A stretch of 64,000 bases of DNA, from positions 2,976,001 through 3,040,000 of the forward strand of contig NZ_CP020772.1 of NCBI RefSeq assembly GCF_002097535.1. The letters are read 5' to 3'. Positions 15,177-43,309 of the stretch are shown here, piece by piece. Source of the DNA: Halobacillus mangrovi. GTDB taxonomy: Bacteria > Bacillota > Bacilli > Bacillales > Halobacillaceae. The position numbers and the translations under genes were made by a program. Within the stretch, counting starts at the first letter, position 1; each line of letters starts with the position of its first letter. The notes beneath the pieces were generated by a model, which was not told where the DNA came from, ran no database searches, and saw only the letters and a program-made list of their open reading frames with translations.

Positions 15177-16652
15177 TTAAGAATGATTCGCTTTTCTATT
15201 TTTTAAGCCTATAGCCACAACGGCGATTACGAAAAGGGACAGAACTCCCCCAACAAAACCGATAAACAACCAATTGTAGCCCCGGTCCGGCTCTACGAGA
15301 AAGACATCTGCTGTTTCTCGCTCCATACCTAACCGGTAAACGCCATCTTTTTGCTGCCGTATAATTCCATCTTGAATTAAACCGGTTAATTGCTGGTCAT
15401 CCTTCAAGTTCGTTAGCTCCGTGGATTTCGTTTCTTCGGCATTATTTATAGCGATGATCATCGTCTGATCTTGATACGTACGCTTGAAAACAGCAAGTCC
15501 ATCATTATTGTACATTTCCTTAAAATCGCCTCGGGTAAGAGCTGGAAATTGGTCTCTCATCGACGTAAGCTTCTCGATCCGGCGCTTCAGTTCTTCATCT
15601 TCTGCCTTGAAGTTCATCATAGAGATGCTTGAAGGATCTCCTCCATCATCTAATGGAACCTCAGATCCAAAATAAAGCACTGGAATTCCAGGGGATGTGA
15701 ACAGGTAAGTGAGAGCCAGTTCCCATCGCGTGATCGGGTTCAGACCTTCTTCTACAGCTAGATGAGTAAAGCGGGAGACATTCGGGCTATCCATATAATG
15801 TAAGAGCTGATTGGGATTTGTGTATTTTTTCCGATTTTCTTCCCATATGTTATATAAACCATCAAGTGATCGTCCTGAAGAGGCAAAGACTTCCCGAATA
15901 TTTTCATTCAATGCCGTATCGATCCTTCCACTCCCAGCTGCTGAGATATTCGATGCAATGAAAAAGTTTTCGTTCTCAGCCATGACTTCGTCCCTAAATG
16001 TTTGAATGAATTCAGATGAGGTCGATGTTGCGTCAACGATCTTGAATCCATCTACTCCTGTTTGATCTATCCAAAATTGTGCTGTTTTGATTAAGTATTG
16101 TTGGACTTCAGGGTTGCTTGTATTCAAAGGACGCGCTTCTGCTAGCCAAGGATTATGGCTTTCCGTTGCTCCATCCTTAAACCAATCTGTCTTAGATTGA
16201 TCCTCCAACCAAGGGTGTTCAGGACTGGTGTGTCCAATCACCAAATCAAGCATAACCTTCATATCCCGTTTATGTGCTTCTTCTATAAGCCGTCTGACAT
16301 CTTTTACATTTCCAAAATGTTCTTCCACTTTGCGGAAGTCCTCAATCCAATATCCATGATATCCATTCTTACTGTTCGCCATTATCGGAGACAGTTCAAT
16401 AGTTGTAAATCCAAGTTCTTTTATGTGATCTAATTGATCGATCACTCCCTGAATGTCACCTCCATGGTAAGCATCAGGGTTACTTGTGTCGACATTGTCA
16501 TTATTTTTGACACTACCGTTCATGAATCGGTCGACCATTAAATAATAAATGCTTTCATCCTGCCATTTTCGTCCTTCTTTTTCAACGGCTCCTACCGGGA
16601 GGGCGTATAAAAAAAGTAACGGGACCATGAGAACGATTATTGATTTTCTCAT
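15177..16652 (-). CDS. Membrane-anchored GH13 alpha-amylase-like protein, predicted inactive
   Basis: A 491-residue extracytoplasmic protein: signal peptide (residues 1-22), GH13 barrel (about 30-390), beta domain, and a C-terminal membrane helix (about 463-485) with basic tail. Barrel region I is LDLVIGHTSPEHPW (Asp136 and His141 kept, Asn lost). Region II is GVDGFKIVDATS: Arg is Lys204 and the nucleophile Asp position is Val206. Region III is FFIASN: the acid Glu is Ser234. Region IV is YMDSPNVSRF: the transition-state Asp is Asn291. All three catalytic carboxylates are therefore gone in an intact frame. It probably binds glycans or partners. ATG at 16652 behind AAGGAGGAG. Confidence 0.9.
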   Translation of the reverse strand: MRKSIIVLMVPLLFLYALPVGAVEKEGRKWQDESIYYLMVDRFMNGSVKNNDNVDTSNPDAYHGGDIQGVIDQLDHIKELGFTTIELSPIMANSKNGYHGYWIEDFRKVEEHFGNVKDVRRLIEEAHKRDMKVMLDLVIGHTSPEHPWLEDQSKTDWFKDGATESHNPWLAEARPLNTSNPEVQQYLIKTAQFWIDQTGVDGFKIVDATSTSSEFIQTFRDEVMAENENFFIASNISAAGSGRIDTALNENIREVFASSGRSLDGLYNIWEENRKKYTNPNQLLHYMDSPNVSRFTHLAVEEGLNPITRWELALTYLFTSPGIPVLYFGSEVPLDDGGDPSSISMMNFKAEDEELKRRIEKLTSMRDQFPALTRGDFKEMYNNDGLAVFKRTYQDQTMIIAINNAEETKSTELTNLKDDQQLTGLIQDGIIRQQKDGVYRLGMERETADVFLVEPDRGYNWLFIGFVGGVLSLFVIAVVAIGLKNRKANHS

Positions 16653-42341: not shown

Positions 42342-42470
42342 ATGATGAACGTTATTGAATTTTTCCGTAACCTGCCTAAAAAACACTGCACAAGCTGCGG
42401 TAATGTAATAGAAGAAAAGGCTGACTGCTACGGTAATGTGTGTGATGAATGCGACCACCCTGCTCGATAA
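42342..42470 (+). CDS. YhfH-like zinc-ribbon microprotein (42 aa)
   Basis: Tandem ATG codons behind GGAGGGG. The 42-residue protein has CTSC and CDEC pairs plus a Cys between them, a probable zinc ribbon, after an amphipathic helix NVIEFFRNLPKKH. Length, motif and position beside yhfI match B. subtilis YhfH. An extended -10 (TGTTATAAT, about 42282-42290) precedes it and a terminator follows. Function unknown. Confidence 0.82.
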   Translation: MMNVIEFFRNLPKKHCTSCGNVIEEKADCYGNVCDECDHPAR

Positions 42471-42515
42471 TTCTAGTATTCCACAAAAGAATAAAATTGG
42501 AACATAAGAATATGG

Positions 42516-42545
42516 AGCAGCTGACATCAGCTGCTTATTTTTTTG
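42516..42545 (+). terminator. Terminator of the YhfH-like gene
   Basis: AGCAGCT / AGCTGCT stem with a 6-base loop, then TATTTTTTTG. Confidence 0.85.
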
Positions 42546-42558
42546 TTCTATAACAGAA

Positions 42559-42572
42559 TGTAAACGTTTACA
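42559..42572. promoter_or_regulatory. Perfect cre (CcpA) site
   Basis: TGTAAACGTTTACA fits the cre consensus TGWAANCGNTNWCA at every position and is a perfect palindrome. It is centred about 60 bases before the predicted RNA start site, a placement typical of CcpA activation rather than roadblock. Confidence 0.8.
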
Positions 42573-42590
42573 AAGTTGTCACAACTCAGC

Positions 42591-42619
42591 ATGACTACTA
42601 AGAGAAAAGGTGGTATAAT
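42591..42619 (+). promoter_or_regulatory. Extended -10 promoter of the large RNA
   Basis: ATGACT, 17 bases, TATAAT within TGGTATAAT. Predicted start near 42626; no protein gene follows. Confidence 0.78.
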
Positions 42620-42625
42620 AAAAGT

Positions 42626-43105
42626 GTAAAGAAGATAACAAAAAAACTTAAACAACTTAGGTGACTCAACCATCGCGAGTTCGTTTCCAAACGAACGAAG
42701 GCGCCGGCCAAATGAAGGAACACTAATCCTGTGGAAAGGATGGAAAATCAGCCTTGGAATGGTCAGGCGGCCAACAGGTCTACAGTTACAAAGTAGACAA
42801 TGGGTGTCTCTAATGAAGGGCGATGACCCCTTTAGACAGAAAACCGATAGTCAGCACCATGATGTGAGGTAGTCTAACAAAGAGAACCACCTAGTACGAT
42901 CATTTCTTTTGAAAGAGTGTAAACCGAAGGAAAATGATTTAAATTGGACTTAACCAAAACGAAGGAAAGAAGGAAACGGATTCCCTAAAGAATTGTCCTT
43001 CAAGAAAAGATAATGTTCAAACAGATGTAGAATCACGGATGATTCTTACATGGTTGGGTCACCTAAGTTGTTTATCCCTTCCCCCTGGCTTATGCCAGGG
43101 TTTTT
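42626..43105 (+). ncRNA. Large structured noncoding RNA, class not recognised
   Basis: A 480-nt transcription unit without a plausible protein. A 24-bp stem closes it: 42650-42673 (AAACAACTTAGGTGACTCAA...) pairs with 43050-43073, with one G-U and no mismatch. Inside are several hairpins: GTTCGTTT/AAACGAAC, ATCCT/AGGAT, GTCTAC/GTAGAC, AAGGG/CCCTT nested within TGTCT/AGACA, ATCATTT/AAATGAT, GAAGGA/TCCTTC enclosing GGATTC/GAATT, and ATGTAGAATCA/TGATTCTTACAT. It is not RNase P, tmRNA, SRP RNA or 6S by any conserved element I can find, and no group I or II intron core is seen. It has its own promoter, cre site and terminator. Confidence 0.8.
43083..43105 (+). terminator. Terminator of the large RNA
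   Basis: CCCTGGC / GCCAGGG, loop TTAT, then TTTTT. Confidence 0.92.
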
Positions 43106-43121
43106 ATTTGCAATGGCATAT

Positions 43122-43167
43122 AGGTAAACTATTTTTAGCTCAATGTAAAAAATAGTTTACCTTTTTT
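43122..43167 (+). terminator. Second plus-strand terminator
   Basis: Perfect 15-bp stem AGGTAAACTATTTTT / AAAAATAGTTTACCT followed by TTTTT, directly upstream of the truncated regulator. Confidence 0.8.
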
Positions 43168-43176
43168 GTTCTAGGA

Positions 43177-43302
43177 GTGAAAAAAGCTGGCGTAAGCAGA
43201 CAAACCATTTTCTATCTGGAAAATAACGGGTATAACCCATCTCTAATATTGGCGTTTGAAATTGCACGCTTATTTGAAAGAGATATCAATGAAAGCACAT
43301 AG
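43177..43302 (+). pseudogene. 3' remnant of an Xre-family HTH regulator
   Basis: The frame reads KKAGVSRQTIFYLENNGY then NPSLILAFEIARLFERDI, the recognition helix and downstream helices of small Xre/Cro regulators. The first two helices (about 25 residues) are missing; the sequence upstream is a terminator. A GTG behind AGGAG at 43177 could start a 41-residue peptide, but it would lack a complete HTH. Most likely a decayed gene. Confidence 0.75.
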
Positions 43303-43309
43303 CCCACTA

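What the first reader, a model, noticed from the sequence alone, without database searches (positions are those of the whole stretch)
42559..43105. Large free-standing structured RNA with perfect cre site
The sequence shows a complete noncoding transcription unit: perfect cre palindrome, extended -10 promoter, about 480 nt with no plausible protein, and a rho-independent terminator. A 24-bp closing stem (42650-42673 with 43050-43073, one G-U) encloses at least seven hairpins, some nested. I cannot match it to RNase P, tmRNA, SRP, 6S, introns or known riboswitches. It is in the size range of 'ornate' RNAs (OLE, GOLLD, ROOL), whose partner genes are not present here. The cre position about 60 bases upstream suggests CcpA activation. 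That an RNA of this size is carbon-regulated is inference.
Basis: partly seen in the sequence, partly recalled or inferred. Interest (0 to 1): 0.9.

Follow-up and report, generated by a model that had tools for sequence, protein, structure and literature searches.

The report
New carbon-regulated structured RNA family
Salt-loving bacilli carry what looks like an uncatalogued family of large folded RNAs, often in several copies per genome, whose gene switches look wired to sugar supply or redox state; it encodes no evident protein and its job is still unknown.

Summary
Window 42559-43108 looks like a complete non-coding gene: perfect cre, extended -10, about 480 nt closed by a 25-bp stem, terminator. 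It folds far better than shuffles (z -6.0) and matches no Rfam family. It is one of 42 copies collected from 31 genomes: four here, others in relatives (named hits are Halobacillus and Thalassobacillus) and in a second, unnamed family. Core lengths: 250-995 nt. Compensatory changes support the closing stem (17 cells in 8 pairs; shuffles 1.3) and a long-range helix (4; 0.6), though no single pair passes a tree-based test. A cre with at most one mismatch occurs in 34 of 42 copies, in 31 centred 46-50 nt before TATAAT; four others carry a perfect TTGTGAA-N4-TTCACAA palindrome in that slot. Neighbours differ, so it probably acts in trans. A CsrA sponge and a RoxS sponge do not fit this genome. Best reading: a new class of large, CcpA-activated, trans-acting RNA, probably in a protein complex, possibly two-state. 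Transcription, regulation and function are untested.

The parts
42559..42572 (+). cre palindrome TGTAAACGTTTACA, centre about 49 nt before TATAAT (about -61 from the inferred start)
   Evidence: sequence; consensus match with 0 mismatches; cre with at most 1 mismatch in 34 of 42 copies
42611..42619 (+). extended -10 promoter element TGGTATAAT; RNA start inferred near 42626
   Evidence: TGNTATAAT with at most 2 mismatches found in 34 of 36 copies, 28 perfect; the start site is inferred
42626..43108 (+). inferred transcript, about 480 nt
   Evidence: promoter and terminator positions; not observed as RNA
42649..42673 (+). P1 closing stem, 5' strand
   Evidence: 17 both-side-changed cells in 8 of 25 pairs over 42 copies, shuffles 1.3
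43050..43074 (+). P1 closing stem, 3' strand
42677..42688 (+). element A (GAGUUCGUUUCC): long-range helix with B, or local hairpin with A'
   Evidence: A:B 98.8% of cells paired, 4 both-side-changed cells in 3 of 12 pairs, 0 of 300 shuffles as many;
42689..42696 (+). element A' (AAACGAAC), alternative local partner of A
   Evidence: 4 both-side-changed cells, all at one pair
42972..42983 (+). element B (GGAAACGGAUUC), long-range partner of A
42989..42998 (+). element B' (AGAAUUGUCC), can pair with C'
   Evidence: 95.9% of cells paired, but covariation not clearly above shuffles (31 of 300 as high)
43027..43049 (+). hairpin C:C' with GGAU loop (GGAU in 35 of 36 copies of A1); its segment 43037-43046 is the alternative partner of B'
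   Evidence: 88.4% of cells paired, 7 both-side-changed cells in 3 pairs, 1 of 300 shuffles as many
42947..42955 (+). GACUUAACC; can pair with 43052-43060 in most copies of the first family, but is absent from L068, L123, L124 and L125
   Evidence: 8 or 9 pairs in 30 of 36 copies; L068 and L123-L125 lack it
42820..42874 (+). internal motif GNNAUGACC - variable stretch - GGUAGUC in the middle domain (kink-turn-like by eye; recalled, not tested)
   Evidence: stricter pattern ACNAUGACC...GGUAG in 12 of 42 copies, 0 of 8400 letter shuffles; the window copy is only a near match, was not counted, and its enclosed stem is just 4 bp
43083..43108 (+). rho-independent terminator and U-tract
   Evidence: terminator-like site within 75 nt after 42 of 42 copies, against 108 of 600 random stretches of the fetched loci

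Best explanation
Window 42559-43108 is one gene of a new family of free-standing, structured, trans-acting RNAs of halophilic bacilli. SHOWN by sequence comparison: a discrete non-coding unit with conserved promoter, conserved P1 and A:B helices, and a terminator, present in several diverged copies at unrelated places. INFERRED, about 0.75: CcpA with HPr-Ser-P binds the cre about 61 bp upstream and activates transcription when preferred sugar is present, while some paralogues answer to another factor in the same slot (Rex, or an FNR-type activator). INFERRED, about 0.5: the RNA works in trans as the core of a ribonucleoprotein, with P1 and the junction as the common recognition part and the variable middle domain as a paralogue-specific arm, adjusting metabolism under sugar excess or redox stress. 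INFERRED, about 0.35: it is a two-state RNA in which A pairs with B in one state and with A' in the other. No target or partner was found.
For: Structure: z -6.0; P1 17 both-side-changed cells against 1.3, A:B 4 against 0.6; the named folds beat slid controls and, on nearly all measures, shuffles. Family: four copies in this genome, 26 of 44 genomes of its taxonomic family, 5 of 9 of a second one; in the order sample all 17 positive genomes of 397 belong to these two. Promoter: cre with at most 1 mismatch in 29 of 34 copies with a located extended -10, centre at -46 to -50 in 28 of them; about 1% expected per shuffled 50-nt stretch. Two more copies have it about 12 nt closer and three of the second family at -49. 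Perfect TTGTGAA-N4-TTCACAA in the same slot in L038, L053, L126, L127; this genome has a Rex-type protein. Terminators 42 of 42. Trans action: 28 distinct neighbour pairs among 36 copies, downstream frame on the opposite strand in 25 of 35 (mechanical reading frames of 90 aa or more).
Against: No transcript data. A tree-based null on 36 copies gave no single column pair with E at or below 2, and the RNAalifold covariation term is small (-1.7 of -56.2 kcal/mol), so covariation is convincing per helix only; the shuffles ignore relatedness. B:B' has no covariation support (217 of 300 shuffles as high) and B':C' little (31 of 300). Four copies, two of them in this genome (L037, L039), have neither cre nor the palindrome. 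18 of 44 genomes of the family have no DNA match, so the RNA is dispensable there or has diverged. CcpA and HPr were not looked up in this genome. No partner or target was found.
Confidence: 0.72

Rival explanations
1. It works like RosA or RsaI: a CcpA-controlled sponge that base-pairs with and removes other small RNAs.
For: RosA is a stand-alone CcpA-controlled RNA that sponges RoxS and FsrA (PMC8216469, passages). The RNA here is multicopy and CcpA-linked.
Against: RosA is repressed, with a predicted CcpA site at -1 to +12; here the cre is upstream. This genome has no RsaE/RoxS by RF01820, although the control genome Bacillus subtilis rings. Other partner sRNAs are not excluded.
Confidence: 0.1
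2. It is an RNA-only assembly working like OLE, ROOL or GOLLD, held together by copy-to-copy pairing of A with B.
For: Size class and complementary segments in nearly all copies. PMC12286853 (passages) shows that such RNAs form homo-oligomers.
Against: No Rfam match to those families. Intermolecular and intramolecular pairing cannot be told apart here. No match in phage records or, by exact motif, in viral contigs.
Confidence: 0.15
3. A decoy for the RNA-binding protein CsrA (CsrB-like).
For: GGAU in the loop of hairpin C in 35 of 36 copies. By predicted fold, unpaired GGA triplets exceed the shuffle mean in 28 of 37 copies (my count), and two of 37 copies have more GGA than 95% of shuffles.
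Against: GGA is only slightly above expectation overall (mean 9.6 against 8.5). This genome, complete and with four copies, has no CsrA match; nor do G019 (a fragmented draft) and G033, both bearing the RNA, while 41 of 44 genomes of the family have CsrA.
Confidence: 0.01
4. A mobile element of the MITE type whose terminal inverted repeats are the closing stem.
For: 25-bp inverted arms and several copies per genome.
Against: Promoter, cre and terminator outside the arms recur too; copies in this genome are only 69-77% identical where they align; changes in the arms are compensatory. Target-site duplications were not tested.
Confidence: 0.03
5. A leader or attenuator of a downstream gene, or part of the yhfH-type dual-function RNA encoded just upstream.
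For: A 42-codon CxxC frame that I read as YhfH-like lies at 42343-42471. In Bacillus thuringiensis YhfH RNA is about 500 nt and encodes a 42-residue peptide (PMC10989752, passages).
Against: A separate terminator-like site at 42515-42536, the RNA's own promoter and terminator, downstream frame on the opposite strand in 25 of 35 copies, and differing neighbours elsewhere.
Confidence: 0.03

Closest known systems
OLE RNA
   Same: Large structured RNA of extremophilic Bacillota; disruption of the OLE complex impairs growth on alternative carbon sources (PMC10898510, title and abstract start in listing).
   Different: No Rfam match; core 250-995 nt instead of about 600 (listing); multicopy; cre-type promoter; scattered genomic places.
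ROOL and GOLLD RNAs
   Same: Size class and complex fold.
   Different: Those are encoded in phages and prophages, often near tRNA islands (PMC12286853, passages). This RNA was found in bacterial genomes, with no match in phage records, plasmids or an exact-motif scan of viral contigs, and no Rfam match.
RosA (Bacillus subtilis) and RsaI (Staphylococcus)
   Same: Stand-alone RNA wired to CcpA.
   Different: RosA is CcpA-repressed with a predicted site at the start of transcription and sponges RoxS (PMC8216469, passages); RoxS/RsaE is not found in this genome.
RoxS/RsaE
   Same: Redox input through Rex (PMC8216469, passages), as four copies here may have (palindrome only).
   Different: Far smaller RNA (RF01820 model 112 positions) and no match in this genome.

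Membership tests
OLE, ROOL, GOLLD, raiA (Rfam large RNAs) | Match to the family covariance model at gathering score | tested here: not met
   0 matches in the window; over the RNA at E up to 10 only a 29-nt match to another family; no match over the RNA copies of eight further loci
OLE | Partner protein OapA encoded near by | not tested
   No OapA model was run; the 30 neighbour proteins scanned with Pfam were not checked for it specifically
ROOL / GOLLD | Phage or prophage location | tested here: not met
   No match in 50,697 phage records and no exact-motif match in viral contigs; prophages in the host genomes were not searched for
CsrB-type CsrA decoy | Many GGA motifs in loops | tested here: inconclusive
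   GGA total barely above shuffles (9.6 against 8.5), but unpaired GGA above the shuffle mean in 28 of 37 copies
CsrB-type CsrA decoy | CsrA present in the host | tested here: not met
   0 matches in this complete genome; 41 of 44 genomes of the family have it
RosA-type sponge of RoxS | RoxS/RsaE in the same genome | tested here: not met
CcpA-activated gene | cre upstream of the -35 region at a fixed, helix-face-dependent distance | tested here: met
   rule from PMC3463425 (passages); helix-face dependence itself is only suggested by the spacing
CcpA-activated gene | Expression falls in a ccpA mutant | not testable with these tools
   needs RNA measurements
Structured RNA family | Compensatory base changes in homologues | tested here: met
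   P1 and A:B; single-pair tree-based test not significant

The most novel reading that the evidence does not exclude
A new class of large bacterial RNA that works as a two-state molecular switch: closing stem plus long-range A:B helix in one state, local hairpins in the other. Paralogous copies in one cell are driven by different sensors (CcpA for sugar, Rex or an FNR-type factor for redox) through one interchangeable operator slot about 61 bp upstream, so that one RNA machine integrates carbon and redox state. In two genomes of the second family the RNA is about 1 kb.
Probability: 0.3. Interest if true: 0.88.

Novelty: new variant of a known kind. Interest (0 to 1): 0.76.

Why it matters
Large structured bacterial RNAs are few and their functions mostly unknown. 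This family adds one with a built-in clue: its promoters point to carbon catabolite activation, and in some paralogues perhaps to redox control, so that RNA-seq under defined carbon sources and gene removals are direct tests. A carbon-activated structured RNA of this size, with several differently wired copies per cell, would make the question of what large bacterial RNAs do experimentally approachable. The apparent swap between two operator types in one fixed promoter slot is also of interest for promoter evolution.

Tried and rejected
CsrA sponge: rejected because CsrA is missing here; the GGA test alone is equivocal. RoxS sponge: RsaE absent. Pairing with 16S rRNA: GGACUUAACC of a typed consensus has a 10-nt complement in 16S (1 of 100 letter shuffles had a run of 10 or longer), but GACUUAAC is exact in only 27 of 36 copies and absent in L068 and L123-L125; dropped. 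H-type pseudoknot in the middle domain: a formal one exists in 35 of 36 copies against 141 of 216 shuffles, mean score 21.9 against 12.8, so there is some signal, but different copies use different strands; not claimed. Alternative pairing of GACUUAACC with the P1 3' strand: 27 of 36 copies hold a perfect 9-mer complement against 17% of shuffles, but not the four copies above; kept only as a lead. Tree-based covariation null: no single pair significant. Consensus fold of the internal motif: none predicted; the hairpins were then looked at one by one (stem of 6 or more in 8 of 12, shuffles 16%; the window copy only 4). Protein coding: the frame VAQPSRVRFQTN from the conserved P1/A segment recurs in several copies but ends at different places. 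Papers: seven searches; in the 10 to 15 papers listed by each I saw no description of this RNA; several searches matched far more papers than were listed.

Rows dropped: the match at G019:C372 (L009/L043) was not paired into a complete copy and was left out. L068 was left out of A1, R1 and the promoter table and included in the 42-copy counts. L052 and L067 were not located by the filter (their -10 lies closer to the stem); their cre is. Some -10 assignments are wrong and are superseded. L064 matched the pattern but was not among the 12 fragments.

Full report
WHAT IS IN THE SEQUENCE. The window holds a cre palindrome (42559-42572), an extended -10 (42611-42619), a 25-bp inverted arm pair (42649-42673 / 43050-43074, 96% complementary) and a terminator (43083-43100). 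The inferred transcript, about 42626-43108, is highly structured: the stretch 42620-43110 folds at -154 kcal/mol, z -6.0 against 100 shuffles. No Rfam family matches at gathering score in the window. With relaxed limits only matches far under their cut-offs appear: 18 in the 1201-base surroundings, best E 0.065 on the other strand over the promoter, and one of 29 nt at E 1.1 in the RNA itself. The longest internal sense frame is 37 aa.

FAMILY. In its own complete genome (4.14 Mb, one contig) the RNA has four copies, 69-77% alike where they align. By DNA similarity 26 of 44 genomes of the taxonomic family match, in 3 of 6 genera, some with two or three copies. An exact motif scan of the GTDB collection (84,980 species genomes by the tool's description) found 23 stretches, named Halobacillus (19) or Thalassobacillus (4). 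A covariance model of the 3' domain (R1) found 1 of 398 genomes spread over the class (only this one). In the order it found 17 of 397, 12 of the window's family and five of a second, unnamed one, which is 5 of 9 genomes of that family. The two large searches scored only the best 8 candidates per genome with stricter filters, so weak relatives may be missed. Of 20 relatives searched more sensitively, the 18 without a DNA match gave nothing below E 0.4, and the two with weak DNA matches (G016, G020) were confirmed. I assembled 42 copies from 31 genomes: 36 in alignment A1 (25 genomes), L068 from G020, and five from the second family. Core lengths run from 250 to 995 nt.

STRUCTURE. On the 42 copies, P1 has 98.4% of cells paired and 17 both-side-changed cells in 8 of 25 pairs (shuffles 1.3). 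The long-range helix A:B has 98.8% paired and 4 such cells in 3 of 12 pairs (shuffles 0.6; 0 of 300 as many). Hairpin C:C' has 7 cells in 3 pairs (1 of 300). The local hairpin A:A' has 4 cells at one pair (0 of 300). B:B' shows nothing above shuffles (217 of 300) and B':C' little (31 of 300). The L068 copy alone changes both sides of three P1 pairs. On A1 the long-range fold has 98.7% of cells paired and the local fold 95.4%. Both exceed slid controls, and shuffles on all five measures for the first and on four for the second, the fifth being reached by 17 of 500 shuffles; related sequences can exceed such shuffles without structure. The two folds are close in energy in many copies: mean 1.5 kcal/mol above the optimum for the long-range fold (largest 6.9) and 7.3 for the forced local one (largest 22.4), the long-range fold being lower in 35 of 36. 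A tree-based single-pair null found nothing at E of 2 or less. I therefore hold P1 and A:B as well supported, C:C' as likely, and bistability as a hypothesis.

A recurrent internal motif, ACNAUGACC - hairpin - GGUAG, is in 12 of 42 copies including three of the second family (0 of 8400 shuffles). In 12 fragments (11 of these copies plus the window) 8 have an enclosed stem of 6 or more pairs, of differing sequence, against 16% of shuffles; the window copy has only 4. I read the motif as kink-turn-like from memory; not tested.

PROMOTER. Aligned on the extended -10 (found in 34 of 36 copies of A1, 28 perfect), a cre with at most one mismatch lies upstream in 29 of 34. Its centre is at -49 from TATAAT in 18, at -46 to -50 in 28, and at -37 in one. 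L052 and L067 have it at -36.5. In the second family L123, L124 and L125 have it at -49. That is 34 of 42 copies, 31 of them at -46 to -50; about 1% is expected per shuffled 50-nt stretch. Four copies (L038 in this genome, L053, L126, L127) have a perfect TTGTGAA-N4-TTCACAA palindrome in the same place; L126 and L127 are also one mismatch from cre. Four (L037, L039, L045, L068) have neither. The palindrome is the Rex consensus as I recall it and also fits an FNR-type site. This genome has a Rex-type protein (PF06971, 76 bits), and its best CRP/FNR-type match is just over the cut-off (28 bits, a profile that rings in all 14 control genomes). The cre consensus is recalled too. Upstream, helix-face-dependent cre sites are the activating kind (PMC3463425, passages). 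The near-constant spacing, with three copies about 12 nt closer, argues for contact with RNA polymerase, that is activation. This is inference; CcpA was not looked up.

CONTEXT. Pfam scans of 30 neighbour proteins, chosen as family representatives, found among others PPK2, a peroxidase, pyruvate formate-lyase with a radical-SAM protein (activase by inference) and an alcohol dehydrogenase, PhoD, carbonic anhydrase, an EAL protein, UPF0182, a queuosine-synthesis protein, an aminotransferase and an S-layer-domain protein; five had no match. There are 28 distinct neighbour pairs among 36 copies, and the downstream frame is on the opposite strand in 25 of 35; these are mechanical reading frames of 90 aa or more, not annotated genes. 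A terminator-like site follows 42 of 42 copies, against 108 of 600 random stretches. The RNA thus looks autonomous and trans-acting. A tree of the core, printed without support values, puts this genome's copies on different branches, so the paralogues look old.

WHAT IT IS PROBABLY NOT. Not a CsrA decoy here, not a RoxS sponge here, not evidently coding, not a leader. It has no match in the phage and plasmid records and no exact-motif match in viral contigs. It is unlikely to be a MITE, because promoter and terminator outside the arms recur. rRNA pairing did not hold up, and a middle-domain pseudoknot stays open.

MECHANISM. Most likely: sugar excess activates the promoter through CcpA; the RNA folds around P1 and A:B and works in trans, probably as the core of an RNP; paralogues give the same core different inputs. 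Rival working modes are an RNA-only multimer like OLE/ROOL/GOLLD (PMC12286853, passages) or a sponge for another sRNA. Nothing here identifies a partner or target.

NOVELTY. Rfam 15 has no matching family. Seven paper searches listed no paper that describes it, but only the top 10 to 15 of each were seen, several matched thousands, and subscription papers are mostly not held.

Noticed in passing
L126:96-1102 and L127:7538-8495: Two copies in the second family are 995 and 946 nt long in the core, more than twice the usual size, with the same 5' and 3' elements and promoter.
   Followed up: partly
G000, G019, G033 (whole genomes): No CsrA match although 41 of 44 genomes of the family have one; this complete genome may have lost CsrA.
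   Followed up: no
window 43122-43303: A 15-bp perfect inverted repeat (43122-43136 / 43148-43162) precedes a short reading frame that looks by eye like the tail of an XRE-type helix-turn-helix protein; perhaps a remnant.
   Followed up: no
window 42343-42471: A 42-codon frame with CxxC pairs, YhfH-like by eye, directly upstream. YhfH RNA in Bacillus thuringiensis is reported as a dual-function sRNA (PMC10989752, passages).
   Followed up: partly
L054, L055, L064: In three genomes a cre-bearing copy lies beside genes for a pyruvate formate-lyase-like protein, a radical-SAM protein and an alcohol dehydrogenase, which would fit a fermentation or overflow role.
   Followed up: no
L039:1910-2295: Two SAM riboswitches in opposite orientation about 170 bases apart.
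   Followed up: no
L123:2740-2806, L127:4314-4380 and 15402-15467: Bacillaceae-1 RNA (Rfam RF01690, over its cut-off) some kilobases from the copies of the second family.
   Followed up: no
L063, L044 and L125 upstream regions: Operator sequences intermediate between cre and the TTGTGAA-N4-TTCACAA palindrome, as if one site type turns into the other by a few mutations.
   Followed up: partly
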